Shown in pieces: positions 1,726-52,900 of a DNA stretch of 64,000 bases. This DNA comes from Aphrocallistes beatrix (taxonomy: Eukaryota > Porifera > Hexactinellida > Sceptrulophora > Aphrocallistidae). The notes below the pieces were generated by a model. That model made no database searches and was not told the DNA's origin. It worked only from the letters and a program-made list of their open reading frames with translations. The position numbers were made by a program, and so were the translations under genes. The stretch's first letter is position 1. Every line of letters starts with the position of its first letter. The DNA is taken from NCBI GenBank assembly GCA_963281255.1, contig OY725497.1, forward strand, positions 4,766,968 through 4,830,967, given 5' to 3'.

Positions 1726-2043
1726 CTAAGGGTGCAGGTTCAAAAGATTCTTATAATCTCCGATCTCTTCAATCAGAGATTCTCTTTCCTTTTTTAGATC
1801 AGATATTTCCTGTTTCAGTTCTCTCACTTTATTTTCCACTCTTAAGCCCTCCCCACTCTTTCGAAGTCGAGATTTTTGGGTATTTCTTTTTGAGATTTCT
1901 TTCATTCTGTCTTTCTCAATTTTCTCCGCTTCGCCCTGAGTCACGTTTGCATTGGCCATTATGACTCTCAACTCCCTCATTCCTACATTCGCTATTCTTT
2001 CCCGCGTAAAGTCTTCGATGCCGTTGAGATTTGCATTTTCCAT
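1726..2043 (-). CDS. Small single-exon bZIP-like protein (mini-bZIP 1)
   Basis: Encodes 105 residues from the ATG at 2043-2041. The C-terminal half is a bZIP-like helix: a basic stretch (KRNTQKSRLRK) followed at the canonical spacing by heptad positions V, L, L, L, Y within VENKVRE-LKQEISD-LKKERES-LIEEIGD-Y. The Asn that normally contacts DNA is Ser (SKRNTQKSR against the N-x7-R pattern), so DNA binding may be altered. There is nothing else in the protein but a short acidic N-terminus. A TATAAATA box lies about 65 bp upstream. It belongs with the similar genes at 5878, 23127 and 52855 (minus). Function by family is nuclear dimeric DNA binding; target and partner are unknown. Confidence 0.75.
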   Translation of the reverse strand: MENANLNGIEDFTRERIANVGMRELRVIMANANVTQGEAEKIEKDRMKEISKRNTQKSRLRKSGEGLRVENKVRELKQEISDLKKERESLIEEIGDYKNLLNLHP

Positions 2044-2105
2044 TATTATTGTTTTATTTAATTTTTTTTTAAATTTTTTTCATATTTCTGTCGCAGAATT
2101 GTTTG

Positions 2106-2113
2106 TATTTATA
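2106..2113 (-). promoter_or_regulatory. TATA box of mini-bZIP 1
   Basis: TATTTATA on the plus strand reads TATAAATA on the minus strand, 63-70 bp upstream of the ATG at 2043. The same octamer precedes the bZIP-like genes at 23127 and 52855. Confidence 0.6.
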
Positions 2114-2394
2114 CTTGGAGGTGTTTCTCTGAATTCCTCCGTTTTCGAACTTGCCGAAATGTGGATAGGAGCAATGTATCCACATTTGGATATTGACAAA
2201 ATTTGCATTTCTTATCCACATTTGTGTTGCTAGGAACCTAACTCTGGATTCCTATCCACAATTTTTAACCGCTTGCTACTAGCCAACGTAAACCACATAA
2301 TTATGTTTGCATAATTAGTGGATCGGTTTTGAAGGTAACGAGTAGCTATTTCAACTGGAAGATCGAGGGAGTGATGAAACCGTAACTCTTTTTA

Positions 2395-2490
2395 TTTCAA
2401 GAATTACGAGCGCGCTTCGCTTGCTTGGCTGCGCGGCTGGCGAGCATTTCGTGTCCGCTTCAGTCGCCCTCAGGGCGCCTGTGCTAATGT
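2395..2490 (+). repeat. Fragment of the GC-rich hairpin repeat family
   Basis: A short GC-rich block (GAGCGCGCTTCGCTTGCTTGG, GCGCGGCTGGCGAGCA, CGTGTCCGCTT, CAGTCGCCCTCAGGGCGCC) matches the left end of the longer copies at 13661 and 49828. It is degenerate in the GGCGGACAC hairpin. Confidence 0.6.
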
Positions 2491-3624: not shown

Positions 3625-4707
3625 ATGGCAAATCAGGACACATTCTACCTATCTTCTCGTCCGAATTTCTGGCGTAGCTTTTGGAACATTTTTTACAGAA
3701 TCAGTTTCTCCCCCTCCCTCCTTGCCCAATCAGAGTCCAGGATGCTTCAGTCTCTGAAGTCACATGTGATTATTCGAGATCTAAAAATAGGTCCTGACAC
3801 ACACATCCACACCATCCACTTGGAGAGTTCCCAGCACAGCCTTGCGATCCCATTGGTCATCCTCCCAGGAATGGGGGCGGGGGTTGGCTTCTTTGTGAAG
3901 AATCTTGACACCTTTAGTGAGAAATCAGACGTGTACTCCATGGACCTTCTAGGATTCGGTCGCAGCTCTAAACCTAATTTTAGTAGCGATCCCAGCGAAG
4001 TGATTGGTCAGTTCGTCCAGTCGCTAGAAGATTGGAGAGTTAGTGTAGGTTTGGATAAATTCATTTTATTGGGGCATAGTTTCGGTGGTTACTTAGCAAC
4101 CTGGTACGCATGCCAATACCCCAATCGTGTTGCTAAGCTGATTTTAGCAGAGCCTTGGGGGTTTCCATCCATCGCAGAACCAAAACCGCAAACTGATAAA
4201 AGCGCCCATTTCACGAGTAAGCTTTTCAGCACTGGCTTATCCATGGTTATCTTCTATCTAAAGTTATTTTTACCCTATTTCTTCTTCCGATTTGGTTCCA
4301 GAATCGCGAAATATTTTTTGAGTTTTGTTCGAGCCGATTTTTTTAATTTATTTGAAAATTTCGTTGATCCAATCTTTTTCTGTGATTATCTCTTTCATTA
4401 TAACTGCCAGTACCCGTCTGGAGAAATGGCATTCTCCAGACTACACATTCCTTTCGCCTGGAGCAATCACCCCCTACTGCCTGATTCTATAAAAAGAATC
4501 GACCCTTCCATTCCAATCCACTTCATTTACGGGAGTCATTCTTGGATGCACTCCACTTCTGGGTTCAGCGTGAAACACCTGTTAGAGAACGAAGTGGCGG
4601 TAGATGTCATTGAAGGAGGAACCCACCATGTTTATGCTGAGAACTCAGGAATGTTCAATAAGGTTGTGTGTGAGTCGATAGAGAAAGTGACCAATCAGAA
4701 TTCCTGA
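3625..4707 (+). CDS. ABHD4/ABHD5-type alpha/beta hydrolase, copy 1
   Basis: A 360-residue intronless alpha/beta-hydrolase. Signals: oxyanion region LVILPGMGAG, DLLGFGRSSKP, nucleophile elbow GHSFGG at about residue 150, EPWGFP, PSGEMAFSRL, and a C-terminal GGTHHVYAEN. These together are specific to the ABHD4/ABHD5 (CGI-58) group, which acts on N-acyl phospholipids or controls triglyceride lipolysis. The nucleophilic Ser is present, as in ABHD4. Two deviations: the position where ABHD4/5 carry the catalytic Asp after the GS/GA-x4 turn reads His (GSHSWMHSTSG), and the HX4D motif is HX4E. So activity is uncertain. The N-terminus (RPNFWRSFWNIFYRI) is amphipathic or hydrophobic and may associate with membranes. 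It is near-identical to the gene at 8324 outside the lid. Confidence 0.85.
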   Translation: MANQDTFYLSSRPNFWRSFWNIFYRISFSPSLLAQSESRMLQSLKSHVIIRDLKIGPDTHIHTIHLESSQHSLAIPLVILPGMGAGVGFFVKNLDTFSEKSDVYSMDLLGFGRSSKPNFSSDPSEVIGQFVQSLEDWRVSVGLDKFILLGHSFGGYLATWYACQYPNRVAKLILAEPWGFPSIAEPKPQTDKSAHFTSKLFSTGLSMVIFYLKLFLPYFFFRFGSRIAKYFLSFVRADFFNLFENFVDPIFFCDYLFHYNCQYPSGEMAFSRLHIPFAWSNHPLLPDSIKRIDPSIPIHFIYGSHSWMHSTSGFSVKHLLENEVAVDVIEGGTHHVYAENSGMFNKVVCESIEKVTNQNS

Positions 4708-4869
4708 ATATATAGCATTGTGTGTGTATTTAGAATCTCGGATATTTTGTCTTAAAATACTCTGGATCTGAGGGACATTTATTAGAGAAATGTCGATCAA
4801 CAGTGGGAGAAATAATACAAAGAAATCTCATTTCTAGCGTAAAATATTACTTAATTTTAAAATTCAAAC

Positions 4870-5791: not shown

Positions 5792-5800
5792 TATATAAAT
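5792..5800 (+). promoter_or_regulatory. TATA box of mini-bZIP 2
   Basis: TATATAAAT lies 78-86 bp upstream of the ATG at 5878, the same arrangement as the related bZIP-like genes, though here not the exact octamer. Confidence 0.5.
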
Positions 5801-5877
5801 GAAGAGGTTGCAGAGAATGATAAATAGCATCAACAAAACAACTTGTAGAGACATAAAAGCGCTTTTGGATTCTTAGC

Positions 5878-6231
5878 ATGTCCTCTCTGAATAATGCCAG
5901 GAGTTGTGTCTTTAACGAGCTGTGTGGTCCACTTAGTGGCATGTTTAATTTTAACGTTTGTCTGGAGAGAAATGCAGCAGCCTCGCTTTCCCTGAAGGAG
6001 ATAGACGCGATGAATACTTCTGAGGAGGGAAAGGATCTGATTCGGAAACTCAGGAAAGTGGAGCGAGGCAGAAGAGCCACTGCAGAAAGTCGGATTAAGG
6101 AGAAAGATCGGTTCGAAGAGCTTATGAGAAACGTCGCGAGTTTGGAATTGGAAAAGCAGGTTTGGCTGCTAGAACGCGATAAATTGATTAAAGAATTAGA
6201 ATTCCTCAAGGTTGCTATGGAAAGGCAATAA
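5878..6231 (+). CDS. Small single-exon bZIP-like protein (mini-bZIP 2)
   Basis: Encodes 117 residues. The last 60 form a bZIP-like helix: basic part RGRRATAESRIKEKDR, then heptad positions L, L, W, L, L in LMRNVAS-LELEKQV-WLLERDK-LIKELEF-L. The AxAESR core is bZIP-like, but the invariant Asn is Gly. The N-terminal 55 residues have no recognised domain and include several Cys. The zipper aligns without gaps to the other three mini-bZIPs. An antisense ORF of 181 codons covers the same bases but has no such features. Confidence 0.75.
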   Translation: MSSLNNARSCVFNELCGPLSGMFNFNVCLERNAAASLSLKEIDAMNTSEEGKDLIRKLRKVERGRRATAESRIKEKDRFEELMRNVASLELEKQVWLLERDKLIKELEFLKVAMERQ

Positions 6232-8290: not shown

Positions 8291-8323
8291 TGTAAATATC
8301 TAGCCAATCAGCTTTCAGTTGAG

Positions 8324-9400
8324 ATGACAAATCAGGACACTTTCTACCAATCTTCTCGTCCGAATTTCTGGCGTAGCTTCTTGAACATTTTCTACAGAAT
8401 AAGCTCGTCCCCCTCCCTCCTTGCCCAATCAGAATCCAGGGTGCTTCAGTCTCTGAAGTCACGCTTCACACTTCGAGATCTAAAAATAGGTCCTGACACA
8501 CACATCCACACCATCCACTTGGAGAGTTCCCAGTACAGCCCTGCGATCCCATTGGTCATCCTCCCAGGAATGGGGGCGGGGGTTGGCTTCTTTGTGAAGA
8601 ATCTTGACACCTTTAGTGAGAAATCAGACGTGTACTCCATGGACCTTCTAGGATTCGGTCGCAGCTCTAAACCTAATTTTAGTAGCGATCCCAGCGAAGT
8701 GATTGGTCAGTTCGTCCAGTCGCTAGAAGATTGGAGAGTTAGTGCAGATTTGGAGAAATTCATTTTATTGGGGCATAGTTTCGGTGGTTACTTAGCAACC
8801 TGGTACGCATGCCAATACCCCAATCGTGTTGCTAAGCTAATCCTATCAGAGCCTTGGGGGTTTCCATCCATAACAGAACGAAAACCGAGAAGAAGTTTCA
8901 GAAGCTTAAGTTTCACTGGCATTCTTTGGAGAATAATGGTTTATTTGATAATATTCTATCTAAAATTCTCTCAGCCGTATTCTGCCATACGCACGAGCTT
9001 CGGAGCTGTGAAATACTTTTGGAGGTTTTTGCGAAGCGATTTTTTCGATTTATTTAAAGGTTTCGTTGATCCAATCACACTCGGGGATTATATCTTTCAT
9101 TATAACTGCCAGTACCCGTCTGGAGAAATGGCATTCTCCAGACTACACATTCCTTTCACCTGGTGCAATCACCCCCTACTGCCTGATTCTATAAAAAGAA
9201 TCGACCCTTCCATTCCAATCCACTTCATTTACGGGAGTCATTCTTGGATGCACTCCACTTCTGGGTTCAGCGTGAAACACCTGTTAGAGAATGAAGTGGC
9301 GGTAGATGTCATTGAAGGAGGAACCCACCATGTTTATGCTGAGAACTCAGGAATGTTCAATCAGATTGTGTGTGAGTCGATAGAGAAAGTTTCCAGTTAG
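8324..9400 (+). CDS. ABHD4/ABHD5-type alpha/beta hydrolase, copy 2
   Basis: A 358-residue intronless paralog of the gene at 3625. It keeps LVILPGMGAG, DLLGFGRSSKP, the GHSFGG nucleophile, PSGEMAFSRL and GGTHHVYAEN, and shares the unusual His in GSHSWMHSTSG and Glu in HX4E. Residues about 52-172 and 257-350 are nearly identical to copy 1 at the DNA level. Residues about 180-255, the lid that normally shapes the acyl pocket, differ strongly (RKPRRSFRSLSFTGILWR against PKPQTDKSAHFTSKLFST). Homology to copy 1 starts only about 35 bp before the ATG and stops near the stop codon. Substrate is unknown; the two may be specialised versions. Confidence 0.85.
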   Translation: MTNQDTFYQSSRPNFWRSFLNIFYRISSSPSLLAQSESRVLQSLKSRFTLRDLKIGPDTHIHTIHLESSQYSPAIPLVILPGMGAGVGFFVKNLDTFSEKSDVYSMDLLGFGRSSKPNFSSDPSEVIGQFVQSLEDWRVSADLEKFILLGHSFGGYLATWYACQYPNRVAKLILSEPWGFPSITERKPRRSFRSLSFTGILWRIMVYLIIFYLKFSQPYSAIRTSFGAVKYFWRFLRSDFFDLFKGFVDPITLGDYIFHYNCQYPSGEMAFSRLHIPFTWCNHPLLPDSIKRIDPSIPIHFIYGSHSWMHSTSGFSVKHLLENEVAVDVIEGGTHHVYAENSGMFNQIVCESIEKVSS

Positions 9401-10931: not shown

Positions 10932-12350
10932 ATGTCTTTCAATACTTTGATCATACAAACAATTTCTTGCCTTGAAGATGTGCTCAAGTTCATGCACAAA
11001 GTTTCTGTGGACAAAGATGAGGATTCCTATCTCGAATCCGTTGTTTCGAATTTAGTGGAGGAATGGAAGCAACACGCTGAAGGCGCCAAAGAATCGAAAC
11101 ATAAACGACAGATGTCAGATCATGTTGTCTGTTCTAAAAAAAGCTATGAAGACACTTTGCAGAGGTTGAGGCGGTCGTCGAATTTAGAGGGCAGAACGGC
11201 GCGAAAGAGTGAAGACCATTCGTCCACTCATCTCACGATTCCTTCAGAAAACGCGCCCATTCTCCCTCCCAGGAATAATATTACGCGGGGAAATGTCATC
11301 CGAGAGCGGAAAACACCTCCACACCGACACAATCTGCTCAAAAGCAGCAATTCAGCCACCGAACTCGAGTTGGAAAGAAAAGTATCAGACCCCCCACAGA
11401 GAGTTAGCACCCCTGAAAACAGCGACACTCTTGTCTGCAGCTACGATTCCTTGCTGAAGATAAGAATGAAGTGCCTGACCCCAGAAGTGGGATTCAGAGC
11501 TGAAAGTCCTTTGGAATTAACGAAAAACTCCCTCGACAATAGCGTAGAGCTGGAGCACCTGACCCCGCCGGAACTTTCGAAAGCGCAGAGCTGTTCTGAT
11601 TTGGCGGATAAAGTGGCGGAAGAATCGACTGGGGACTCAACTCTGCTCTCAAACTCTCTTCGCTCCTCCTACGTCAAGTTCAAACCCAAGAACGGGAGAT
11701 GGTCCAAAATGTACTTAACGCTGATTGGCAAGAATATCTACGTTTCGCGCAACTACGCGGACGACCAAACTGAGCTAATCTATTCGCTGGAAAACTTTGA
11801 AATTGTCCCGAAAGATGACGGAAAGTCGAAGCTGCTTATTTTGCTGAAGACGAACAACGTCACTCAATGCTCCATTTGGATGAAGAGTTCTGACATCAGA
11901 GATGATTGGTACAAATCCATGGTCCGAGCTAAGTACCGACAGAGACACAAGTCGTCCGAGTCTCTGGACACTTCTCCCAGTGAGGGCGAAAGGACCAATA
12001 GGAGTCGAGAGGCCATTTATGTGTCACCGAATACTGTGAATCCCAATGCTGCAAGAAACCTTGGCATAAAAGTGGTCATAAACGACCACAGTCGTGCCAC
12101 TTTAGAAAGGAAAAAGGTGTCAAAAGAAGATGAGAACACAGTTCCAGTTGCAGATAAATCGAAACTAGACAGTTCGAGTGGTGAGTATGTCGTGAATGAA
12201 TGGGATGAATTTGGAGGAAGTGACGATGAGGAGAACTATCTTAGTGTAATAAGCTCGCCACTCAACAATGGACGGACATCTTGCAGCTTAGCCTTTGAAC
12301 AGAAAACTCAAACTTCTTTTGAGAATTCCCATTTTTATTTGCAACATTAG
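10932..12350 (+). CDS. Intronless PH-domain protein, AFAP-like
   Basis: Encodes 472 residues with one PH fold at about 247-335: YVKFKPKNGRWSKMYLTLI, then a strand-rich core and the closing Trp helix DDWYKSMVRAKYRQRH. The N-terminal helix (CLEDVLKFMHKVSVDKDEDS) followed by a Ser/Pro-rich disordered linker with PPR/PPH motifs and then PH resembles the first half of actin-filament-associated protein (AFAP1), where the PH includes a similar QWTKL..IPKD pattern. AFAP has a second PH domain and a coiled coil that are absent here. By family it would be a cytosolic adaptor binding phosphoinositides or SH3 domains. The C-terminal 140 residues are acidic, Ser-rich and disordered. The AFAP link is tentative; a PH domain of some kind is well supported. 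Confidence 0.7.
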   Translation: MSFNTLIIQTISCLEDVLKFMHKVSVDKDEDSYLESVVSNLVEEWKQHAEGAKESKHKRQMSDHVVCSKKSYEDTLQRLRRSSNLEGRTARKSEDHSSTHLTIPSENAPILPPRNNITRGNVIRERKTPPHRHNLLKSSNSATELELERKVSDPPQRVSTPENSDTLVCSYDSLLKIRMKCLTPEVGFRAESPLELTKNSLDNSVELEHLTPPELSKAQSCSDLADKVAEESTGDSTLLSNSLRSSYVKFKPKNGRWSKMYLTLIGKNIYVSRNYADDQTELIYSLENFEIVPKDDGKSKLLILLKTNNVTQCSIWMKSSDIRDDWYKSMVRAKYRQRHKSSESLDTSPSEGERTNRSREAIYVSPNTVNPNAARNLGIKVVINDHSRATLERKKVSKEDENTVPVADKSKLDSSSGEYVVNEWDEFGGSDDEENYLSVISSPLNNGRTSCSLAFEQKTQTSFENSHFYLQH

Positions 12351-23069: not shown

Positions 23070-23077
23070 TATAAATA
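23070..23077 (+). promoter_or_regulatory. TATA box of mini-bZIP 3
   Basis: TATAAATA lies 50-57 bp upstream of the ATG at 23127. Confidence 0.6.
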
Positions 23078-23126: not shown

Positions 23127-23600
23127 ATGTCTTCGGTAAGTTTCGAGTTTGACAGCGAAAGAGAAAACTTAAAAGCAAAATGCAATCGAGCTTACTCAAT
23201 ACTGAAGAACAAACACTATCCACTCCTCTTCGAGAATGAAAGTGATTTCTTGGATCTCATCGATGTCAACAAACTGGTCTACACCAAAGCTTCCGAACTT
23301 AATCCCATCTTGGACACCAAACTGTTCACTGAACATGAAAAAAACTGGATTCGCGAAAGTAGGCGAAAGGCCATTAACAGAAAAACGGCTGCTGAGTCAA
23401 GGGACCGCAAAAAGGCCGAATTTTTGGAACTGAAATTCGGACTGACAGACTTGAAAGATGAGAAATTGGCTCTGGAGCAAATGCAAATCGCGTTTCTGCG
23501 AGAAATTAATTTTTACAAGCAAGGATTGGACAAAATGGCCCGCGGAGTGAACCCACGTAGACGCGCCCCAATATTCACCTCAGTGGAAACCTACCAGTAA
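23127..23600 (+). CDS. Small single-exon bZIP protein (mini-bZIP 3)
   Basis: Encodes 157 residues from the first true ATG (the open frame extends upstream to a TTG at 23091 but without ATG). It has the best bZIP of the four: NRKTAAESR matches N-x7-R exactly, followed nine residues later by heptads L, L, L, F, Y in LKFGLTD-LKDEKLA-LEQMQIA-FLREINF-Y. The N-terminal 85 residues are unrecognised, and a basic PRRRAP patch follows the zipper. It likely acts as a nuclear DNA-binding dimer and is a candidate canonical partner for the mini-bZIPs with altered basic regions. Confidence 0.85.
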   Translation: MSSVSFEFDSERENLKAKCNRAYSILKNKHYPLLFENESDFLDLIDVNKLVYTKASELNPILDTKLFTEHEKNWIRESRRKAINRKTAAESRDRKKAEFLELKFGLTDLKDEKLALEQMQIAFLREINFYKQGLDKMARGVNPRRRAPIFTSVETYQ

Positions 23601-31437: not shown

Positions 31438-32661
31438 TCAGATTCTCCTCAAGAAATACATGAAACATTTCTTCCATATAAGGAAACCGACTAGAACTAT
31501 ATTTAGTAACAGCGACATATACCAATTGAACCTGTATCGATACTCCGCAACTGTCCTCGGACAGAAATATATCTGATTGATCGGGTTAGCTTGTTTGGGA
31601 CGTTCTCTGTGGGTGGCCTCTAAGTCCAGTTTGGCGCCTTCCTTGTGGGTGTTTTGAGTTTCTGATTTGGAGCCATCTTCGTGGGTGGTCTCGGTGTCGG
31701 ATTTGGCGCGTTGTCTGAGGTGGTCCCATTCCAAGCCACGTTTCAACGCGTCCACAAAGTAGCAGGAGCGACACTGGAAAGATTCTGTCCACAGAACTCG
31801 GTTCTCTTCCTCAAACTCGGGATCCAGTGGCTTCTTCTTCCATTCGAAGTAGCTGGCGTAGAGTGTCTCGTTGTCGAGGAGCATTTTCAGATAGTTAGCG
31901 ACATCATATGGTCCGTCAAACTCTGCCACATCGATGTAAGAACCAGGTGGCACAACTTCTGCCACTTCTCGTGTGCCCATCCATACAGGAAGCACTCCAG
32001 CTTCGAATGAGTGGTAGATTCTGTCAGTAATGAAACCAGGAGAATCCCCATTCTCGAATGCCAAGTGGAATTTGTAGTCATGAATCATCTCCGTTTTAGT
32101 GCAAGGCTTTGTGCCACATTGAGGCCACTCCGCGTTGTTGAGGCAGGAAGAGGGCGACACTACTCCGACCACATCATCGATTGCCTTCACGTAGTCTTTG
32201 CGGTTATTCATGGCTCTACAATTTCTTGCCACAAAAGTGGCTTTCGGTTGAGCTTGTGCTGACACTTCAATTAATCGCAGCCTATTCAGATCTCCTCCTG
32301 GACGTAAGAGCCACGGAATGTCAGAATGTCGGTAGAGGAAACTGGTGCCGTGGAAGTGGTGCTTTAGAAACTCAGGTTTCATCAGGTGGTAATAATGTGG
32401 CGGTTCTTGTCCACCAATCAGTCGGAATGGAGCAGATGGAGGAGTGGCAATCGCATCTCTCACATAATCATCATTCATCACGATGAAGAACTCTGCATCC
32501 GGACTACTAGGATTGCCAGAGAACTGACACGGAATCTCACAACTGCCATCGAAATTGTGGTCGACACCATTCAGTATTTCAGGAATAATCTTAATGACAA
32601 TGGCAGAGTTTGGAGCAGAAAATAGAATCAGAATGAAAGTGAATATCACCACAAATCCCAT
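31438..32661 (-). CDS. GT10 alpha-fucosyltransferase-like protein, copy A
   Basis: Encodes 407 residues; the ATG at 32661 (MGFVVIFTFILILFSAP, a signal peptide or anchor) is preferred over upstream in-frame codons without support. The GT10 signature is clear: SCEIPCQF, YRHSDIPWLLRPGG, then YKFHLAFENGDSPGFITDRI, GVLPVWMGT, PPGSYIDVAEF and YFEWKKKPLD, the donor-binding half of alpha-1,3-fucosyltransferases (GDP-fucose, Golgi lumen). A C-terminal hydrophobic segment (WYMSLLLNIVLVGFLIW) with a basic tail follows a short Thr/Glu/His-rich linker. It is almost identical to the gene at 37646 through the catalytic domain but diverges in the tail. Confidence 0.88.
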   Translation of the reverse strand: MGFVVIFTFILILFSAPNSAIVIKIIPEILNGVDHNFDGSCEIPCQFSGNPSSPDAEFFIVMNDDYVRDAIATPPSAPFRLIGGQEPPHYYHLMKPEFLKHHFHGTSFLYRHSDIPWLLRPGGDLNRLRLIEVSAQAQPKATFVARNCRAMNNRKDYVKAIDDVVGVVSPSSCLNNAEWPQCGTKPCTKTEMIHDYKFHLAFENGDSPGFITDRIYHSFEAGVLPVWMGTREVAEVVPPGSYIDVAEFDGPYDVANYLKMLLDNETLYASYFEWKKKPLDPEFEEENRVLWTESFQCRSCYFVDALKRGLEWDHLRQRAKSDTETTHEDGSKSETQNTHKEGAKLDLEATHRERPKQANPINQIYFCPRTVAEYRYRFNWYMSLLLNIVLVGFLIWKKCFMYFLRRI

Positions 32662-32717
32662 TTTGACAGCTGACTTCTCACCAACCAATCTAATTGGGGA
32701 TAGAAAGTAAATTTTAG

Positions 32718-32920
32718 ATGTGTCGCGTACCATTAAATTGTGTCGCGTACCATTAAATTGTGTCGCGTGCCACAATTTTGTGGCGGTGTTTATCAAGTTA
32801 CGGTGAAACTGATTGAACCATAAGGCTATTTGAGTAAACGGAACAAAATCTCATAATTCTACGCTAGAAAACAATCCATGGTTATATAGTATAAGAATCT
32901 CACGAATCTACGCAACAGTA
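32718..32920. repeat. Relative of the 1135 foldback family with a 20-bp tandem repeat
   Basis: GTGTCGCGTACCATTAAATT is repeated in tandem near 32718-32757, followed by CCACAATTTTGTGGC and segments (GATTGAACCATAAGGC, CAATCCATGGTTA) shared with the arms at 1135-1400. Confidence 0.6.
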
Positions 32921-35026: not shown

Positions 35027-35797
35027 ATGCTAATTCCAAAGTTAATTCTCCTCTCCATTCTTCTGCCCTATCTCCTGGAATCAGCTGAAGACGACGATGA
35101 TGATAATACATACGATTATTTGGTGCTCGCGTTAACTTGGCCTGAAGGCTACTGTGACAGTATCGGGGATGGTTGCAACAGAACCAAGCTCTCCAACACG
35201 TGGACAATCCATGGTCTATGGCCCACTTTGGGCGACCAGATAACTAAACCCGCTTTCTGTTCAGGGGGAGCTTTCAACTCGCAATCGATTGGGAGTCAAT
35301 TGAGATCTAAATTAAGAACGGCATGGCCTAATTATAGGGTTGATTCGAGCGACGAATCGTTTTGGAGTTACGAGTGGAGTAAACATGGCACATGTGCACT
35401 CATCGGCGATCCTGACACATTCCCGACACAAACTTCATATTTCTCAAAAACGCTTCAACTCTATGAGAAGTTTAACTTCAATAATATTCTCCAGAAGAGT
35501 GACATCACACCTGGCACCATAACCACCTTATCAGAACTGAAATCCATCTTCAATCGACACTTCGGAGTGAAAGGCACCGTAGCATTCCAATGCTCCAGTT
35601 CTAGCAACCACCAGATGCTGACCGGGTCTCATTTCTGTCTGAGCGACAACTTCACGGTGGTCAGTTGTCCCTCCGGGAAGACAGATCGCTGTTCTTACTC
35701 TACTCCAGTTCTCTACGCCAGTGGAGCAGACACAACACTTGTGTCGCTATTCCTAATGCTGCTTGCCATCACTCAATTGTTTGTATTTATCTCTTAA
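35027..35797 (+). CDS. Secreted or membrane-tethered RNase T2, first copy
   Basis: Encodes 256 residues. Signal peptide MLIPKLILLSILLPYLLESA, then an acidic patch (EDDDDD) and an RNase T2 fold with both catalytic segments: WTIHGLWP (CAS I His, about residue 59) and FWSYEWSKHGTC (CAS II Glu, Lys, His, about 112-123). It cuts single-stranded RNA in lysosomes or outside the cell. Two N-glycosylation sequons (NRT, NFT). The C-terminus is a hydrophobic run (TLVSLFLMLLAITQLFVFIS) preceded by SGAD, which looks like a GPI-attachment signal or tail anchor and is unusual for animal RNase T2. The sequence repeats exactly at 42739. Confidence 0.93.
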   Translation: MLIPKLILLSILLPYLLESAEDDDDDNTYDYLVLALTWPEGYCDSIGDGCNRTKLSNTWTIHGLWPTLGDQITKPAFCSGGAFNSQSIGSQLRSKLRTAWPNYRVDSSDESFWSYEWSKHGTCALIGDPDTFPTQTSYFSKTLQLYEKFNFNNILQKSDITPGTITTLSELKSIFNRHFGVKGTVAFQCSSSSNHQMLTGSHFCLSDNFTVVSCPSGKTDRCSYSTPVLYASGADTTLVSLFLMLLAITQLFVFIS

Positions 35798-36040
35798 ATG
35801 TTTGTGAACATTCCAATGCCCATTTTGTGTATATTTAGTCAGTGTGAGAAACTATACGCTATTCATTTTCACACCTCGACGCTAAATTTATGAACTTCCA
35901 ATATGGTCCAATATATGCTCAAGTTTTGTCCAAATATTGTATGCATTTATTTAATTAATTTACTCGGCGCCTATTTTCGAGCGCTGGAATTATTTTAGCG
36001 CGCAAGGGTTGCAATAAAGTCATACGCGCCAACTTGAGTC

Positions 36041-36724
36041 ATATGCATCTAATAAAAAAGCGGGACAAAATGAACAAATTTCATGTAAAAATGGGACACT
36101 TGTGAAAATTAGCTCAATTGAAGAGCGAAAAAGGCGGAATGTCCCGGAAAGAAGGGACGATTGGCAAGTATGCAGAGTACTGGAGCCTCATTCACTAAAG
36201 TTCTAAACTGAAATTCTTAGAATTTTTCTTAATTCTAAGAAATTTTAAGTCGAATTCTTAGAATTTTTTCTTAGAGTATTCACTAAAGTCTAAAGTCAAA
36301 TTCTTAGAATTTAGCGAATTATTAGAAAATCCTTGAATTCTAAGAGAAGTTTTAAGTGAGGTAGGGGTTTGACTTAAATTAATTCTTTATGAATTCTAAG
36401 TATTCTTAGAATGGCGTTTAGAATTAAATTAAGAAAAATTATAAGAACTTTAGTGAATGAGGCCTCAGGCCTCCATGAGTGGGGAGCTCGGGACGGCGAA
36501 AATATGCCCATTCACACTCATGTGTGACTATGTATGCATACTTGCCAACTGTCCCGTTTTTGGCGGGACGTCCAGCTTTTTTCACCCTTCTCTTGACCTA
36601 ATTTTCTCGAGTGTCCCGCTTTTTTGACTCTATGTATAATACTTTTCTATTGTGTCCCGCCATGTCCCGCGAAATTCAACGCTGCGTCCCGCTTTTATCA
36701 TGACTCAGGTTGGCATGTATGTGT
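36041..36724. repeat. Nested foldback elements
   Basis: Outer arms share GGCAAGTATGCA / TGCATACTTGCC and several GTCCCG / CGGGAC words (36041-36180 and 36527-36724). Inside sits a second foldback, 36183-36466, with arms GCCTCATTCACTAAAGTTCT and its reverse complement and an interior of repeated TTCTTAGAATTT words. The inner unit inserted into or expanded within the outer. No ORF. Confidence 0.7.
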
Positions 36725-36820
36725 ATGCAATCACAAGACACTAATGGCAAAAATGGTTTGAATGTTTACCAAAGTAGTAATTTCAAGTTGAAGTTAGCTA
36801 TTCCGTTCATTTTCAGACTA

Positions 36821-36988
36821 CAGTCAGGTTCGCTTAATATGAACATTCGTTTATTATGAACTAATTCTCTGGTCCCAATTCAACAGGTTCCATAGGATTT
36901 GTATTAGGTCGAGTTCGCTTAATATGAAGTCTCTATTATGAACAGACTTTTTGGTCTCCAAGGTGTTCATAATAAGCGACCCTGACTG
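36821..36988. mobile_element. 168-bp MITE with CAGTCAGG(T/G)TCGCTTA ends (M2)
   Basis: Left CAGTCAGGTTCGCTTAATA, right in reverse complement CAGTCAGGGTCGCTTATTA, TA on both sides. A diverged relative is at 40917-41085. Confidence 0.8.
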
Positions 36989-37373
36989 TATTTAGATCAA
37001 AATGTCGTCAACATACTTCTGAAAATTACTTTCTAGTTCAAGAACCGACCTTGTGAAAACAAAATTGTACCTGGAGTCTTTTCTATTTATAGTCTGGACC
37101 CCAAATTTATATGGCTTCCCCGCCCAAAATGGCTTAAACGGAATGACGCAACAGATTCCTTGTATAGGCGTGGTTTTAAAGAGGTTCTTTTGAAAAGGAA
37201 AATAATTTCTGAAATTTTTGACTCTCCCATTGACCACTTTCACTGATAGAGGTTCATTTGTGTGGAAACAAATAAAGATGGCTCAAAATTGCCACAAAGT
37301 GGTTCCCCTTTCTTAGAGATAACACTTATAGAGGTTCTATATTTTTCACAAATGTAGTGAATGCCTCTTTTTT

Positions 37374-37546
37374 AATAGGGCCACTGTTTAATCGGGTCAA
37401 CCGCTTAATCGGGACACTTTTGGCAGGACCGGAATAGCTCTCACACATAGAAGCTAATACAAAATATTTTCGGTTAATAGGGTTCTCCGCTTAATCGGGG
37501 CAAAACGTCCTCTGACCGATGTGACCCTATTAAGCGGAGTCGACTG
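37374..37546. mobile_element. M1 MITE lacking its left end
   Basis: Matches 29738-29925 in reverse order from AATAGGGCCACTG to GGAGTCGACTG, but the left terminal bases are replaced by a T-run. Confidence 0.75.
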
Positions 37547-37645
37547 TATTATTATATAAATTTTGGACATACCTAATTTACGGAATGTCCAAATTTTTAC
37601 TTTCTACTCCCAATTAGATTGGTTGCTGAGAAGTCAGCTGTCAAA

Positions 37646-38998
37646 ATGGGATTTGTGGTGATATTCACTTTCATTCTGATTCTATTTTCTGCTCCAAACT
37701 CTGCCATTGTCATTAAGATTATTCCTGAAATACTGAATGGTTTCAACCACAATTTCGATGGCAGTTGTGAGATTCCGTGTCAGTTCTCTGGCAATCCTAG
37801 TAGTCCGGATGCAGAGTTCTTCATCGTGATGAATGATGACTATGTGAGAGATGCGATTGCCACTCCTCCATCTGCTCCATTCCGACTGATTGGTGGACAA
37901 GAACCGCCACATTATTACCACCTGATGAAACCTGAGTTTCTAAAGCACCACTTCCACGGCACCAGTTTCCTCTACCGACATTCTGACATTCCGTGGCTCT
38001 TACGTCCAGGAGGAGATCTGAATAGGCTGCGATTAATTGAAGTGTCAGCACAAGCTCAACCGAAAGCCACTTTTGTGGCAAGAAATTGTAATGCTATGAA
38101 TAACCGAAAAGACTACGTGAAGGCAATCGATGAAGTGGTCGGAGTAGTGTCGCCCTCTTCCTGCCTCAACAACGCGGAGTGGCCTCAATGTGGCACAAAG
38201 CCTTGCACTAAAACGGAGACGATTCATGACTACAAATTCCACTTGGCATTCGAGAATGGGGATTCTCCTGGTTTCATTACTGACAGAATCTACCACTCAT
38301 TCGAAGCTGGAGTGCTTCCTGTATGGATGGGCACACGAGAAGTGGCAGAAGTTGTGCCACCTGGTTCTTACATCGATGTGGCAGAGTTTGACGGACCATA
38401 TGATGTCGCTAACTATCTGAAAATGCTCCTCGACAACGAGACACTCTACGCCAGCTACTTCGAATGGAAGAAGAAGCCACTGGATCCCGAGTTTGAGGAA
38501 GAGAACCGAGTTCTGTGGACAGAATCTTTCCAGTGTCGCTCCTGCTACTTCGTGGACGCGTTGAAACGTGGCTTGGAATGGGACCACCTCAGACAACGCG
38601 CCAAATCCGACACCGAGACCACCCACGAAGTTGGCTCCAAATCAGAAACTCAAAACACCCACAAGGAAGCCAAACTGGACTCAGAGACCACCCACGGAGA
38701 ACCTGCCAACCTGGACTCAGAGACCACCCACGGAGAACCTGTCAGCCTTGGCTCAGAGACCACCCACGGAGAACCTGCCAGCCTTGGCTCAGAGACCACC
38801 CACGGAGAACCTGCCAGCCTGGACTTAGAGACCACCCACGTTGAAGCGCCTGAACCAACCAATCCGACGATTGTTTATATTACAGTTCGTGATTATAGCT
38901 ACAGATCCTATTTATACTTGTCAATGTTCCTAAATTTAGTTCTACTCGCTCTCCTTACATGGAAGAAGTGTTTCAAGAATTTTGGGAGACATTTTTGA
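37646..38998 (+). CDS. GT10 alpha-fucosyltransferase-like protein, copy B (first assembly copy)
   Basis: Encodes 450 residues from the ATG at 37646; the in-frame upstream extension begins with TTG. N-terminal hydrophobic segment, then the same GT10 catalytic domain as copy A: SCEIPCQF (about 40-47), YKFHLAFENGDSPGFITDRI (about 196-215), GVLPVWMGT, PPGSYIDV, YFEWKK. After the catalytic domain come five 12-residue units of the form LDSETTHGEPAN (residues about 344-403, 38675-38854), then a C-terminal transmembrane segment (LYLSMFLNLVLLALLTW) and a basic tail. Known animal fucosyltransferases are type II with the stem on the N-terminal side; here the stem-like repeat and likely anchor are C-terminal. 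Reaction by family: fucose transfer from GDP-fucose in the Golgi. Confidence 0.88.
   Translation: MGFVVIFTFILILFSAPNSAIVIKIIPEILNGFNHNFDGSCEIPCQFSGNPSSPDAEFFIVMNDDYVRDAIATPPSAPFRLIGGQEPPHYYHLMKPEFLKHHFHGTSFLYRHSDIPWLLRPGGDLNRLRLIEVSAQAQPKATFVARNCNAMNNRKDYVKAIDEVVGVVSPSSCLNNAEWPQCGTKPCTKTETIHDYKFHLAFENGDSPGFITDRIYHSFEAGVLPVWMGTREVAEVVPPGSYIDVAEFDGPYDVANYLKMLLDNETLYASYFEWKKKPLDPEFEEENRVLWTESFQCRSCYFVDALKRGLEWDHLRQRAKSDTETTHEVGSKSETQNTHKEAKLDSETTHGEPANLDSETTHGEPVSLGSETTHGEPASLGSETTHGEPASLDLETTHVEAPEPTNPTIVYITVRDYSYRSYLYLSMFLNLVLLALLTWKKCFKNFGRHF
38675..38854 (+). repeat. 36-bp coding tandem repeat in fucosyltransferase B
   Basis: Five units of 36 bp encoding L(D/G)(S/L)ETTHxExxx. The inverted paralog at 31438 has only diverged single copies, so the repeat expanded after the paralogs separated. 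Confidence 0.9.
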
Positions 38999-42708: not shown

Positions 42709-42738
42709 GAGAGTGGCATAGTTCCATATGGAACTAAA

Positions 42739-43509
42739 ATGCTAATTCCAAAGTTAATTCTCCTCTCCATTCTTCTGCCCTATCTCCTGGAATCAGCTGA
42801 AGACGACGATGATGATAATACATACGATTATTTGGTGCTCGCGTTAACTTGGCCTGAAGGCTACTGTGACAGTATCGGGGATGGTTGCAACAGAACCAAG
42901 CTCTCCAACACGTGGACAATCCATGGTCTATGGCCCACTTTGGGCGACCAGATAACTAAACCCGCTTTCTGTTCAGGGGGAGCTTTCAACTCGCAATCGA
43001 TTGGGAGTCAATTGAGATCTAAATTAAGAACGGCATGGCCTAATTATAGGGTTGATTCGAGCGACGAATCGTTTTGGAGTTACGAGTGGAGTAAACATGG
43101 CACATGTGCACTCATCGGCGATCCTGACACATTCCCGACACAAACTTCATATTTCTCAAAAACGCTTCAACTCTATGAGAAGTTTAACTTCAATAATATT
43201 CTCCAGAAGAGTGACATCACACCTGGCACCATAACCACCTTATCAGAACTGAAATCCATCTTCAATCGACACTTCGGAGTGAAAGGCACCGTAGCATTCC
43301 AATGCTCCAGTTCTAGCAACCACCAGATGCTGACCGGGTCTCATTTCTGTCTGAGCGACAACTTCACGGTGGTCAGTTGTCCCTCCGGGAAGACAGATCG
43401 CTGTTCTTACTCTACTCCAGTTCTCTACGCCAGTGGAGCAGACACAACACTTGTGTCGCTATTCCTAATGCTGCTTGCCATCACTCAATTGTTTGTATTT
43501 ATCTCTTAA
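42739..43509 (+). CDS. RNase T2, second assembly copy
   Basis: Identical 256-residue product to the gene at 35027, with WTIHGLWP and FWSYEWSKHGTC motifs, signal peptide and hydrophobic C-terminus. Given the gap and the perfect identity, I treat it as the same gene assembled twice. Confidence 0.9.
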   Translation: MLIPKLILLSILLPYLLESAEDDDDDNTYDYLVLALTWPEGYCDSIGDGCNRTKLSNTWTIHGLWPTLGDQITKPAFCSGGAFNSQSIGSQLRSKLRTAWPNYRVDSSDESFWSYEWSKHGTCALIGDPDTFPTQTSYFSKTLQLYEKFNFNNILQKSDITPGTITTLSELKSIFNRHFGVKGTVAFQCSSSSNHQMLTGSHFCLSDNFTVVSCPSGKTDRCSYSTPVLYASGADTTLVSLFLMLLAITQLFVFIS

Positions 43510-45357
43510 ATGTTTGTGAACATTCCAATGCCCATTTTGTGTATATTTAGTCAGTGTGAGAAACTATACGCTATTCATTTTCACACCTCGACGCTAAATT
43601 TATGAACTTCCAATATGGTCCAATATATGCTCAAGTTTTGTCCAAATATTGTATGCATTTATTTAATTAATTTACTCGGCGCCTATTTTCGAGCGCTGGA
43701 ATTATTTTAGCGCGCAAGGGTTGCAATAAAGTCATACGCGCCAACTTGAGTCATATGCATCTAATAAAAAAGCGGGACAAAATGAACAAATTTCATGTAA
43801 AAATGGGACACTTGTGAAAATTAGCTCAATTGAAGAGCGAAAAAGGCGGAATGTCCCGGAAAGAAGGGACGATTGGCAAGTATGCAGAGTACTGGAGCCT
43901 CATTCACTAAAGTTCTAAACTGAAATTCTTAGAATTTTTCTTAATTCTAAGAAATTTTAAGTCGAATTCTTAGAATTTTTTCTTAGAGTATTCACTAAAG
44001 TCTAAAGTCAAATTCTTAGAATTTAGCGAATTATTAGAAAATCCTTGAATTCTAAGAGAAGTTTTAAGTGAGGTAGGGGTTTGACTTAAATTAATTCTTT
44101 ATGAATTCTAAGTATTCTTAGAATGGCGTTTAGAATTAAATTAAGAAAAATTATAAGAACTTTAGTGAATGAGGCCTCAGGCCTCCATGAGTGGGGAGCT
44201 CGGGACGGCGAAAATATGCCCATTCACACTCATGTGTGACTATGTATGCATACTTGCCAACTGTCCCGTTTTTGGCGGGACGTCCAGCTTTTTTCACCCT
44301 TCTCTTGACCTAATTTTCTCGAGTGTCCCGCTTTTTTGACTCTATGTATAATACTTTTCTATTGTGTCCCGCCATGTCCCGCGAAATTCAACGCTGCGTC
44401 CCGCTTTTATCATGACTCAGGTTGGCATGTATGTGTATGCAATCACAAGACACTAATGGCAAAAATGGTTTGAATGTTTACCAAAGTAGTAATTTCAAGT
44501 TGAAGTTAGCTATTCCGTTCATTTTCAGACTACAGTCAGGTTCGCTTAATATGAACATTCGTTTATTATGAACTAATTCTCTGGTCCCAATTCAACAGGT
44601 TCCATAGGATTTGTATTAGGTCGAGTTCGCTTAATATGAAGTCTCTATTATGAACAGACTTTTTGGTCTCCAAGGTGTTCATAATAAGCGACCCTGACTG
44701 TATTTAGATCAAAATGTCGTCAACATACTTCTGAAAATTACTTTCTAGTTCAAGAACCGACCTTGTGAAAACAAAATTGTACCTGGAGTCTTTTCTATTT
44801 ATAGTCTGGACCCCAAATTTATATGGCTTCCCCGCCCAAAATGGCTTAAACGGAATGACGCAACAGATTCCTTGTATAGGCGTGGTTTTAAAGAGGTTCT
44901 TTTGAAAAGGAAAATAATTTCTGAAATTTTTGACTCTCCCATTGACCACTTTCACTGATAGAGGTTCATTTGTGTGGAAACAAATAAAGATGGCTCAAAA
45001 TTGCCACAAAGTGGTTCCCCTTTCTTAGAGATAACACTTATAGAGGTTCTATATTTTTCACAAATGTAGTGAATGCCTCTTTTTTAATAGGGCCACTGTT
45101 TAATCGGGTCAACCGCTTAATCGGGACACTTTTGGCAGGACCGGAATAGCTCTCACACATAGAAGCTAATACAAAATATTTTCGGTTAATAGGGTTCTCC
45201 GCTTAATCGGGGCAAAACGTCCTCTGACCGATGTGACCCTATTAAGCGGAGTCGACTGTATTATTATATAAATTTTGGACATACCTAATTTACGGAATGT
45301 CCAAATTTTTACTTTCTACTCCCAATTAGATTGGTTGCTGAGAAGTCAGCTGTCAAA

Positions 45358-46710
45358 ATGGGATTTGTGGTGATATTCACTTTCATTCTGATTCTATTTT
45401 CTGCTCCAAACTCTGCCATTGTCATTAAGATTATTCCTGAAATACTGAATGGTTTCAACCACAATTTCGATGGCAGTTGTGAGATTCCGTGTCAGTTCTC
45501 TGGCAATCCTAGTAGTCCGGATGCAGAGTTCTTCATCGTGATGAATGATGACTATGTGAGAGATGCGATTGCCACTCCTCCATCTGCTCCATTCCGACTG
45601 ATTGGTGGACAAGAACCGCCACATTATTACCACCTGATGAAACCTGAGTTTCTAAAGCACCACTTCCACGGCACCAGTTTCCTCTACCGACATTCTGACA
45701 TTCCGTGGCTCTTACGTCCAGGAGGAGATCTGAATAGGCTGCGATTAATTGAAGTGTCAGCACAAGCTCAACCGAAAGCCACTTTTGTGGCAAGAAATTG
45801 TAATGCTATGAATAACCGAAAAGACTACGTGAAGGCAATCGATGAAGTGGTCGGAGTAGTGTCGCCCTCTTCCTGCCTCAACAACGCGGAGTGGCCTCAA
45901 TGTGGCACAAAGCCTTGCACTAAAACGGAGACGATTCATGACTACAAATTCCACTTGGCATTCGAGAATGGGGATTCTCCTGGTTTCATTACTGACAGAA
46001 TCTACCACTCATTCGAAGCTGGAGTGCTTCCTGTATGGATGGGCACACGAGAAGTGGCAGAAGTTGTGCCACCTGGTTCTTACATCGATGTGGCAGAGTT
46101 TGACGGACCATATGATGTCGCTAACTATCTGAAAATGCTCCTCGACAACGAGACACTCTACGCCAGCTACTTCGAATGGAAGAAGAAGCCACTGGATCCC
46201 GAGTTTGAGGAAGAGAACCGAGTTCTGTGGACAGAATCTTTCCAGTGTCGCTCCTGCTACTTCGTGGACGCGTTGAAACGTGGCTTGGAATGGGACCACC
46301 TCAGACAACGCGCCAAATCCGACACCGAGACCACCCACGAAGTTGGCTCCAAATCAGAAACTCAAAACACCCACAAGGAAGCCAAACTGGACTCAGAGAC
46401 CACCCACGGAGAACCTGCCAACCTGGACTCAGAGACCACCCACGGAGAACCTGTCAGCCTTGGCTCAGAGACCACCCACGGAGAACCTGCCAGCCTTGGC
46501 TCAGAGACCACCCACGGAGAACCTGCCAGCCTGGACTTAGAGACCACCCACGTTGAAGCGCCTGAACCAACCAATCCGACGATTGTTTATATTACAGTTC
46601 GTGATTATAGCTACAGATCCTATTTATACTTGTCAATGTTCCTAAATTTAGTTCTACTCGCTCTCCTTACATGGAAGAAGTGTTTCAAGAATTTTGGGAG
46701 ACATTTTTGA
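45358..46710 (+). CDS. GT10 alpha-fucosyltransferase-like protein, copy B (second assembly copy)
   Basis: Identical 450-residue product to the gene at 37646, including the five 12-residue repeats at 46387-46566. Probably the same gene. In the merged order it lies about 280 bp upstream of synaptojanin exon 1 on the same strand. Confidence 0.88.
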   Translation: MGFVVIFTFILILFSAPNSAIVIKIIPEILNGFNHNFDGSCEIPCQFSGNPSSPDAEFFIVMNDDYVRDAIATPPSAPFRLIGGQEPPHYYHLMKPEFLKHHFHGTSFLYRHSDIPWLLRPGGDLNRLRLIEVSAQAQPKATFVARNCNAMNNRKDYVKAIDEVVGVVSPSSCLNNAEWPQCGTKPCTKTETIHDYKFHLAFENGDSPGFITDRIYHSFEAGVLPVWMGTREVAEVVPPGSYIDVAEFDGPYDVANYLKMLLDNETLYASYFEWKKKPLDPEFEEENRVLWTESFQCRSCYFVDALKRGLEWDHLRQRAKSDTETTHEVGSKSETQNTHKEAKLDSETTHGEPANLDSETTHGEPVSLGSETTHGEPASLGSETTHGEPASLDLETTHVEAPEPTNPTIVYITVRDYSYRSYLYLSMFLNLVLLALLTWKKCFKNFGRHF

Positions 46711-49900: not shown

Positions 49901-52900
49901 GCCTGGGGTCACATTGGTTAATTATAAGGGAGATAACATCTCTAAATATGTCTGTCCTACTGTTATAATCTATAACACTCGAAAAATCACCAAATTTATC
50001 AATTTTAAATTTTTTGATGCGTAATGGTGACGTCATAACAAAGTGATGAGTCATCATTTGTGAGGTATGTTAGTATACAGATTCTATTAAAATTTCAGCC
50101 TTCTATCTCCTATAATGGCTGAGTTATGCTCGAATAACTGTATTGCTTAACTTTTAAAATGTGACAATGACGTCATAATTCCATGATGAGTCGACATTTT
50201 GCTCTGAGCTCAGAACTTACTGGAGTCATAGTCAAAAAGCTCCCACATGCCAAAAATTAGCTTTCTATGACCGGCAGTTTCTTCAATCAATTCGTTACAG
50301 ATATATATACACACACATACACACACACAAACATTAATCGGGTTTTAATAGTAAGGATTAGCTAAATGTCAAAAGCGTTGAAAAATGATTTTATTTGCAT
50401 AAATTCAACTATAATTGCGTTGTAAATAATTTTGTTTGCAATAACTGTCTTATCAGCCAACAGATTTCAAGTTTGAGAGTCATTATTGTAGCCAATCTCT
50501 ATTACACAATTGTGTTAACTTCGGCTGTGATATTAAACCCTGCAATTTCATTGGTCAGCACAATTTATCTCGTTTTCAGGCCTTTCAGCCAATTAGATTT
50601 CAAGTTTAGAGAGTGATTGTTACTCATGTAAAGCACTGGATTAGCTCTAATCTTATTGGTCAATGACTCTCAATCGTGTCAAATTATGAAATACAGTCGA
50701 CTCCGCTTAATAGGGCCACTGTTTAATCGGGTCAGCCGCTTAATCGGGACACTTTTGGCAGGACCGGAATAGCTCTCACACATAGAAGCTAATACAAAAT
50801 ATTTTCGGTTAATAGAGTTCTCCGCTTAATCGGGGCAAAATGTCCTCTGACAGATGTGGCCCTATTAAGCGGAGTCGACTGTACCTCGATTCTGATTGGC
50901 TAATACAATTTGACTCTCAAGATCAGGGATATTTTCCAGGGAACGGGAGGGAAAGATTCCAGAGCCCAGCTGGCTCTGTTTATTCGCGTTAGTTATTCCT
51001 GATTCAAAGACTCAGAAAATGAAAGCTGTCCCAAACTGTGACTATTTTTAGGTTAATTTAGTCGCGGAGTGTGCCACTCAACTCGATTTGAACATTGTTT
51101 ATTTGCGATAGATTCGTCCCTTCTTAAATTGAGCCACAATGCCAGAATTCATTTCTATTTTAATTGTTGAAATCCACCTGAAGTGTCTCAGTTTAACAGA
51201 CCTCTCTCTAGGACACTTTTCCACAGCCACCGTAGTTCCACTTGAATTCATTAATTCAGTTAATTTACAATCGACTTTTGATAGCAGACGCTGTGCTATT
51301 TATAGAGACGGGAGTATTCCACATGACTTCTGTACTGCTTTTCTTCCATCAGTGAACCCTCGCAGTTGATTGGTTGATGCAATTCATTATTCTTCAAGTT
51401 TCAGTGTAAAACAGAATTATTTGTGCTAAACATAGAACATTGCACCACATTGTAATTAAAAAATTCCCTATATTTTTGTTCTATTAATAGATTTTGTGAC
51501 TAATTTTAATTTTAAGTAAATACTGATTTTTTCCATGGAAACACTTATAATCCCTGGAATGTGGGTTTCGATCTTTGAACTGCAGATAAGGAACACAGTC
51601 GACTCCGCTTAATAGGGTCACATCGGTCAGAGGACATTTTGCCCGATTAAGCGGAGAACTCTATTAACCGAAATATTTTGTATTAGCTTCTATGTGTGAG
51701 AGATATTCCGGTCCTGCCAAAAGTGGCCCGATTAAGCGGTTGACCCGATTAAGCGGAGTAGAGTGTACAGTCCCGGCAAAAAGTCTGGAATATCGTATGT
51801 AAAATATGAATATTCTAGTTTTAGCAAAAAAAAAATTTTTAATATTGCAGAATATTTTTTGAAAATCTAGAGTCTACTCTTTTATAACACGAAAAGTATG
51901 AAATATTTAGTTAATAAAATATATTATATGTTTATTCCCGGGTAAATTTTAAAAATTGGAAAATACTAAAATATTCCAGACTTTTGCCGGGACTGTACAT
52001 GTACTTTGATAGTGAGTCTAAAAATAGCCACCTCTACCTATATAGCAGTTAATGGATAATGTAATGGCACAGTTAACTCTAAAAATAGAATTTATAAATT
52101 TATAATTAATGTTATTTTTAGTAGTGCTTTATCCTCGTTGCTTTATAGAGAAAGAATTTGAATGGAAGAATTTAATCATTCAAACATTTCTAAAATTAGC
52201 TCAGATGAACTATTCTAACCAATCAGACATTTGCATTTCTAGATGTTAATTCCAATGGAGGCTATGCGTTGCTAAGCAGATTTACTCTCGTAATCTGATA
52301 TTTAATTTATAAAATGCAATTTGATTCGTCGGAGCAATGTTTCTACTTTGTTGTGTCATCAAACTGTTTATTTTTATTTTTATTTTTATTTACAATTTGA
52401 GAAGTATTTATTGGGAAAGGAATTGCCCTAACAGAAAACTGCAGGAATTACATTTTAAGTGAGATTTCTAGGTTCAGTTTCCCTTTGTAGAATTTTATTT
52501 CTTCCTCAAGGGTGAATCTTTTCGTTTCGAGACTTCTCTTCTCTTCGACCAGAATTCTCAATTCATCATTGAATTTCCTGTCCGAGAGTACCGTGCGCAT
52601 CTTATTGATCTCTGCATAATCTCGGATTTTCATCTTCCGCCGCCTCATTTTGATTTTTTTAATTTGATTTTTGTCGAAATTCTTCATCTTTAGAACTGTG
52701 TTGAGGTACTTTATCGGCATTTCCTTGATGTGCTGGTCTTGTAGGTTCAGATACACCGGACTTAGGAGCACTCCTTCAGTCGCATAGCTTCCGTCTGTTT
52801 CTACGTATCCGTTTCCGTGGAAAACTGCTGAGACTCTATTGCAATTGTAAGACATTCTATTAAGTTCTTTTATTTTATCATTTACAATTCTTTTTCTTAT

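What the first reader, a model, noticed from the sequence alone, without database searches (positions are those of the whole stretch)
1726..52855. A dispersed family of four tiny intronless bZIP-like genes
Genes at 1726 (-), 5878 (+), 23127 (+) and 52448 (-) encode 105-157 residue proteins containing little but a bZIP. From the Asn position to the last heptad (about 47 residues) all four align without gaps: heptads V-L-L-L-Y, L-L-W-L-L, L-L-L-F-Y, F-L-L-L-Y, and three end E-I-x-(F/D)-Y-K. Only the 23127 protein keeps the N-x7-R DNA-contact pattern; the others carry Ser, Gly or Ile at Asn. Outside the zipper they are unrelated. This looks like a fast-evolving lineage-specific bZIP expansion with one canonical and several altered members, possibly forming a heterodimer network.
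Basis: partly seen in the sequence, partly recalled or inferred. Interest (0 to 1): 0.85.

Follow-up and report, generated by a model that had tools for sequence, protein, structure and literature searches.

The report
Over 130 tiny Maf/CNC-like bZIP genes
Four tiny gene-switch (bZIP) genes noticed in one stretch of an unnamed, sponge-like animal genome turn out to belong to a family of more than 130 small Maf/CNC-type genes, most with an altered DNA-contact residue, an unusual expansion of a normally small animal gene family.

Summary
The four ORFs exist as described and their gapless basic-zipper block is real. Upstream of the zipper they are not unrelated: three of four match Pfam bZIP_Maf from its first positions, through the extended homology region (EHR) typical of Maf/CNC factors. 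And the family is not four genes: six-frame searches of the 100.5-Mb host genome plus own profiles give at least 131 short ORFs (median 121 aa) with this domain, besides four longer Maf-like genes.

They look like real genes: 124 of 131 have a TATA-like box within 150 bp of the first ATG (shuffles average 40), few copies are broken, and pooled dN/dS over 22 close pairs is 0.45. Neighbouring genes also have TATA boxes, so these say 'gene', not 'special regulation'. Only 37 of 131 keep the bZIP Asn; of 60 with the Maf-type Tyr, one keeps it; at least 11 have lost part of the basic region. Family sites are enriched near contig ends.

Best reading: a lineage-specific radiation of small EHR-bZIP dimer partners, some probably with altered DNA specificity, some zipper-only inhibitors. 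Expression, binding and dimerisation are untested. An IRF-site link is only a weak lead.

The parts
1726..2043 (-). 105-aa EHR-bZIP ORF; Ser at the Asn position, Arg kept; EHR-bZIP at about 1744-2025
   Evidence: bZIP_Maf E 3.8e-4; independent profile 6.9e-5
2106..2113 (-). TATAAATA box, starts 70 bp before the ATG
5794..5801 (+). TATAAATG box, starts 84 bp before the ATG
5878..6231 (+). 117-aa bZIP ORF with partial EHR; Gly at the Asn position, Arg kept; the most divergent of the four
   Evidence: bZIP_1 E 0.034; family matches 5.1e-5 and 7.4e-4
23070..23077 (+). TATAAATA box, starts 57 bp before the ATG
23127..23600 (+). 157-aa CNC-like EHR-bZIP ORF, N-x7-R kept; EHR-bZIP at about 23247-23528
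   Evidence: (NRF2 E 6.1e-4)
52448..52855 (-). 135-aa Maf-like EHR-bZIP ORF; Ile at the Asn position, Lys in place of the Arg; EHR-bZIP at about 52475-52756
   Evidence: bZIP_Maf E 6.6e-5; C9:402352 E 1.3e-6
52898..52905 (-). TATAAATA box, starts 50 bp before the ATG
53013..53028 (-). two overlapping GAAANNGAAA (IRF/ISRE-like) words upstream of the 52448 gene; weak lead only

Best explanation
The four ORFs belong to a radiation of at least 131 small single-ORF genes of the EHR-bZIP (Maf/CNC) superfamily. Shown: EHR, basic region and zipper are shared across the family, little else is encoded, a TATA-like box lies just upstream, and selection on close pairs is purifying. Inferred: each protein works as a dimer through its zipper and, having little room for an activation domain, acts as a small-Maf-like partner or repressor that tunes the few longer Maf/CNC factors and other members. 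The CNC-like class (Ala at Asn+3, mostly with Asn) should still bind MARE/ARE-like half sites. The Maf-like class (Tyr at Asn+3) has nearly always replaced the Asn, most often by Met or Ser, and probably reads changed half sites or binds only beside an intact partner. Members with a deleted basic region should be zipper-only inhibitors.
For: Pfam bZIP_Maf through the EHR; nearest solved sequence of 23127 is NRF2, E 6.1e-4, of a C18 homologue MafA, E 3.4e-12; the model of 23127 has the EHR helices and one long helix, and the top rows are Nrf2-MafG chains in Foldseek and eight Maf chains in VIA-align. Size: 131 members, 127 of them at most 200 aa. Gene reality: TATAWA within 150 bp in 124/131 against 40.4 in shuffles; dN/dS 0.38 in the domain, 0.60 outside. 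Class pattern: Asn in 1 of 60 Tyr-class and 22 of 30 Ala-class members. Basic-region gaps of 3 or more columns in 11 of 129. Core 'a' positions Lys or Arg in 56/131, 86/131 and 68/128, which by recalled coiled-coil rules disfavours homodimers.
Against: No transcript, binding or dimer data. The four window genes have long end branches and no starred clade in an 81-column tree. Some close pairs have dN/dS near or above 1. MARE- and ARE-like words are not enriched upstream, so there is no sign of Maf/CNC self-regulation. The Foldseek E-values are weak (0.03 and up) and helical models score middling Z by default. The deep order of Maf-like and CNC-like members is unresolved.
Confidence: 0.55

Rival explanations
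1. Mostly a birth-and-death family under weak constraint: tandem and subtelomeric duplication keeps making short bZIP copies, many of which are drifting and have no distinct role.
For: Near-identical tandem copies on C1, C8 and C15; enrichment near contig ends; basic regions altered or deleted in many members; some pairs with dN/dS about 1; six members start inside the EHR or lack its first part (my count on the print).
Against: Pooled dN/dS 0.45 (0.39-0.52) and lower in the domain than outside; one clearly stop-broken fragment noted (C1:9163994) against 131 open frames; TATA boxes kept in 124/131.
Confidence: 0.2
2. The expansion serves an inducible immune or stress programme: IRF-type factors bind GAAANNGAAA words upstream and switch on sets of small bZIPs, by analogy (recalled) with BATF-type small bZIPs and interferon-regulated genes of vertebrates.
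For: GAAANNGAAA in 18/116 upstream regions against 3.0 in shuffles, max 8; density 0.763 per kb against 0.135 and 0.139 in two local backgrounds; two IRF-domain loci, one 2-4 kb from two family genes.
Against: Only 15% of promoters; against genomic pieces 18/118 versus 16/450, nominal p 1.8e-5 among 70,991 motifs tallied, not significant after correction; found after looking; no promoters of other genes as control.
Confidence: 0.12
3. An early-embryo or germline set: short intronless TATA genes suited to fast cell cycles.
For: Short single ORFs with TATA boxes; short intronless early zygotic genes are a known theme (search listing only).
Against: Unrelated neighbours and the longer Mafs have the same TATA layout, so the architecture is not special; no expression data.
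Confidence: 0.1
4. Chance coiled-coil ORFs with no relationship.
For: Pairwise identity in the window is low, 23-26%.
Against: 0 of 7,100 shuffled proteins match; EHR, basic and zipper positions conserved over 131 ORFs; TATA boxes and purifying selection.
Confidence: 0.01

Closest known systems
Small Maf proteins (MafF/G/K) and large Mafs
   Same: EHR plus bZIP; Tyr at Asn+3 in 60 of 131; tiny, without an evident activation domain, like small Mafs (recalled); Maf chains top the structural re-alignment
   Different: 131 or more instead of a handful; Asn replaced in 59 of 60 Tyr-class members; zippers of two lengths; some without a whole basic region
CNC factors (NRF2, NF-E2)
   Same: 23127 and its nearest paralogues resemble NRF2 through EHR and basic region
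   Different: About 140-180 aa instead of several hundred; no Neh-type regulatory domains seen (Pfam)
BATF-type small bZIPs and zipper-only inhibitors (recalled)
   Same: A very small protein that is nearly only a dimerisation module
   Different: These have an EHR and are Maf/CNC-like, not AP-1-like; inhibition untested
Single-exon tandem expansions in the glass sponge Aphrocallistes vastus (PMC10282587; sections 5 and 8 and passages read)
   Same: Lineage-specific clusters of single-exon genes in a small sponge genome, there with AIG1 domains
   Different: Another gene family; the text seen mentions one up-regulated bZIP and no bZIP expansion; supplements not seen

Membership tests
EHR-bZIP superfamily (Maf/CNC, Pfam PF03131) | EHR directly upstream of the basic region | tested here: met
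   1726, 23127 and 52448 match from profile position 2-4; conserved over 131 ORFs. 5878: inconclusive, partial EHR
EHR-bZIP superfamily (Maf/CNC, Pfam PF03131) | Leucine zipper in register with the basic region | tested here: met
   d positions Leu in 94/130, 115/131, 109/129 and 104/124; all four window proteins in register
bZIP DNA contact signature | N-x7-R | tested here: not met
   Met by 23127 alone in the window and by 33 of 131 in the family
Small Maf | Basic region with Asn, Tyr at Asn+3 and Arg | tested here: not met
   1 of 60 Tyr-class members has Asn and Arg; none of the four window proteins
Small Maf | Small protein without activation domain | tested here: inconclusive
   127 of 131 at most 200 aa; no other strong Pfam domain in the four; activation not assayed
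CNC factor | CNC-like EHR and basic region (Asn, Ala at Asn+3, Arg) | tested here: met
   For 23127: NRF2 is the best of two PDB sequence matches; 20 of 131 have Asn, Ala and Arg. Not for the other three window proteins
CNC factor | Large protein with activation and regulatory domains | tested here: not met
   157 aa at 23127 as a single ORF; spliced extensions not tested
Maf/CNC function | Maf-CNC heterodimer on MARE/ARE | not testable with these tools
   No binding or dimer assay

The most novel reading that the evidence does not exclude
A sponge-like animal has turned the Maf/CNC module into a combinatorial network of well over 100 mini-bZIPs, with new DNA half-site specificities made by replacing the otherwise near-invariant Asn, natural zipper-only inhibitors, and possibly shared inducible (IRF-type) control.
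Probability: 0.2. Interest if true: 0.85.

Novelty: new variant of a known kind. Interest (0 to 1): 0.6.

Why it matters
Animal bZIP repertoires are small and conserved (PMC4736632, passages read, infers 12 bZIPs in the ancestral metazoan). A genome with at least 131 small EHR-bZIPs, most without the contact Asn, is a natural mutagenesis series for bZIP DNA contacts and partner choice, and asks what an early-branching animal does with so many. I saw no description of it in the listings; that library holds open-licence papers only and no preprints.

Tried and rejected
Rejected: chance coiled coils. Rejected as a special mark: the TATA box. Six of nine window neighbours examined have TATAWA within 150 bp of the ATG (two pairs of these six are recent duplicates) and so do 8 of 11 set-aside bZIPs, among them all four longer Maf-like genes. 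Not supported: MARE or ARE self-regulation (4/116 against 4.0; 9/116 against 10.3). Retrocopying is not needed to explain the lack of introns, because the longer Maf-like genes at C18 are single ORFs too; inference. Led nowhere: deep tree (81 columns); search of viral contigs (could not run), so viral or horizontal kinship is untested.

Counting notes. Eighteen places with every E above 0.5 were not fetched. The last search made one of these significant (C8:4967038, E 2.5e-5), so 131 is a lower bound. The E-values of the iterated profiles are circular for included members; the uniterated profiles gave 124 and 113 there (125 and 116 by whole-protein score). Searches used 129 genes or subsets, because my filter wrongly dropped two on C16. 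The TATA counts, basic-region counts and pooled dN/dS were redone from the 131. The deletion count and the contig-end test were not; the latter used 127 genes in 69 groups, without C16, C3 and C4. The 22 pairs were chosen by me to be independent. The tree left out five rows that I judged short or near-duplicate.

Full report
What is there. The four ORFs are at the stated places with the stated lengths. The window is G000:C11:4766968-4830967 of a 100.5-Mb genome in 28 contigs; C11 is 4,865,527 bp long, so the window ends about 35 kb from the contig's end. The zipper block aligns as described, but three of the four also share the region upstream: bZIP_Maf covers 1726, 23127 and 52448 almost end to end. 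The 5878 protein is the outlier, tied to the family by own-genome matches and not by bZIP_Maf or by the profile made without window sequences.

How large the family is. PF00170 gave 15 matches at E<=1e-3, PF03131 109 at E<=1, PF07716 45 at E<=1. The proteins 23127, 1726, 5878 and 52448 gave 48, 67, 10 and 49 at E<=10, themselves included, and a C1 member 47 at E<=1. The rows I pooled make 163 places. After fetching my profiles accepted 142 of 1,033 ORFs of 60 aa or more. I set aside 11, the four longer Maf-like genes on C18 and seven other bZIPs, leaving 131. From the first Met they are 75-277 aa, median 121. It is a lower bound.

What they look like. At Asn+3, 60 of 131 have Tyr as in Maf and 30 have Ala as in CNC; 40 have another residue and one a gap. 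The Asn place holds N 37, M 24, S 22, K 16 and others 32. Arg eight residues on is kept in 92; both in 33. Eleven of 129 have lost three or more columns of the basic region while the zipper stays (alignment). Zippers end in an E-I/V block in two registers one heptad apart; all four window proteins have the longer form (my reading). Core 'a' positions are often Lys or Arg, and Glu stands at three 'g' positions in 61/131, 91/131 and 106/128. By recalled coiled-coil rules this disfavours homodimers; that step is inference.

Are they genes? TATAWA lies within 150 bp of the first ATG in 124 of 131 (shuffles mean 40.4, max 53; 30 of 127 at -400..-250) and in 112 of 119 non-redundant cases. In random 150-bp pieces of local DNA it is in 147 of 842. 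But RNase T2, fucosyltransferases and all four longer Mafs have such boxes too, so this shows promoters, not special control. AATAAA or ATTAAA follows within 250 bp in 87 of 117 against 62.2 in shuffles, max 73. Pooled dN/dS over 22 pairs is 0.45 (0.39-0.52), 0.38 in the domain and 0.60 outside; single pairs range from 0 to 1.46, with few changes each. Broken copies are few among those read: C1:9163994 has a stop, and several members lack the first part of the EHR. Matches running over a stop were also flagged elsewhere; I did not examine each.

Where they lie. Of 69 groups (genes under 30 kb apart, 127 genes), 28 lie within 500 kb of a contig end (expected 13.2; no one of 5,000 simulations reached it) and 10 within 100 kb (expected 2.6, p 0.0006). 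The simulation spread groups over 16 contigs of known length only. Ends of C11 and C18 carry a related satellite, so at least these two look subtelomeric.

Regulation. The k-mer list against shuffles put TGAAAGT and ACTGAAA next after TATA-related words. That led me to the IRF-type word GAAANNGAAA, enriched against shuffles and local background. The genome has two IRF-domain loci, one of them 2-4 kb from two family genes. Against 450 genomic pieces the count is 18/118 versus 16/450, nominal p 1.8e-5, which does not survive correction for the 70,991 motifs tallied. I keep it as a lead.

Which animal. The source is unnamed. Homeodomain matches are few (17 at E<=1e-4); the six I read look Msx-, NK-, POU- and PRD-like, none Hox-like, by my own reading. 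No Wnt matched, but the tool warns that this does not show absence. With genome size and many single-ORF genes this resembles a sponge, perhaps a glass sponge: PMC10282587 reports 80 Mb, many single-exon genes and no Wnts for Aphrocallistes. This is inference. No other animal genome could be searched, so 'lineage-specific' rests on the scale of the expansion and on the literature.

Relationships. In an 81-column tree human MafA falls with the four longer Mafs (99/99), NRF2 weakly with C1:2971945 (91/60), and 23127 with a CNC-like set (90/84, not starred). The other three window genes have no firm place.

Verdict. A real, large and unusual expansion of small Maf/CNC-type bZIP genes. The heterodimer network is plausible and untested.

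Noticed in passing
window 35027-38998 and 42739-46710: An RNase T2 gene followed by a GT10 fucosyltransferase gene is present twice, 7,712 bp apart, with identical proteins; a third fucosyltransferase lies at 31438-32733(-).
   Followed up: partly
window 3625-4707 and 8324-9400: Two tandem alpha/beta-hydrolase genes of 360 and 358 aa interleaved with the first two bZIP genes.
   Followed up: no
window 30051-31034(-): Open 327-aa Tc1/mariner-like transposase (DDE_3, HTH_Tnp_Tc3_2).
   Followed up: no
window 10932-12350: 472-aa ORF without a Pfam match at E<=1e-5.
   Followed up: no
L046 (C11 end) and L047 (C18 start): A satellite of roughly 180 bp units shared by the ends of two contigs; it also contains a GAAAGTGA word.
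   Followed up: no
G000:C11:488959-489252(-), L153: One of two IRF DNA-binding-domain loci lies 2-4 kb from two members of this bZIP family.
   Followed up: partly
G000:C18:38694-54250: Four longer Maf-like single-ORF genes (255-365 aa) clustered within 16 kb near the contig start.
   Followed up: partly
window neighbours and canonical Mafs: TATA boxes 38-111 bp before the ATG of several unrelated single-ORF genes suggest that TATA promoters are common for such genes in this genome.
   Followed up: partly
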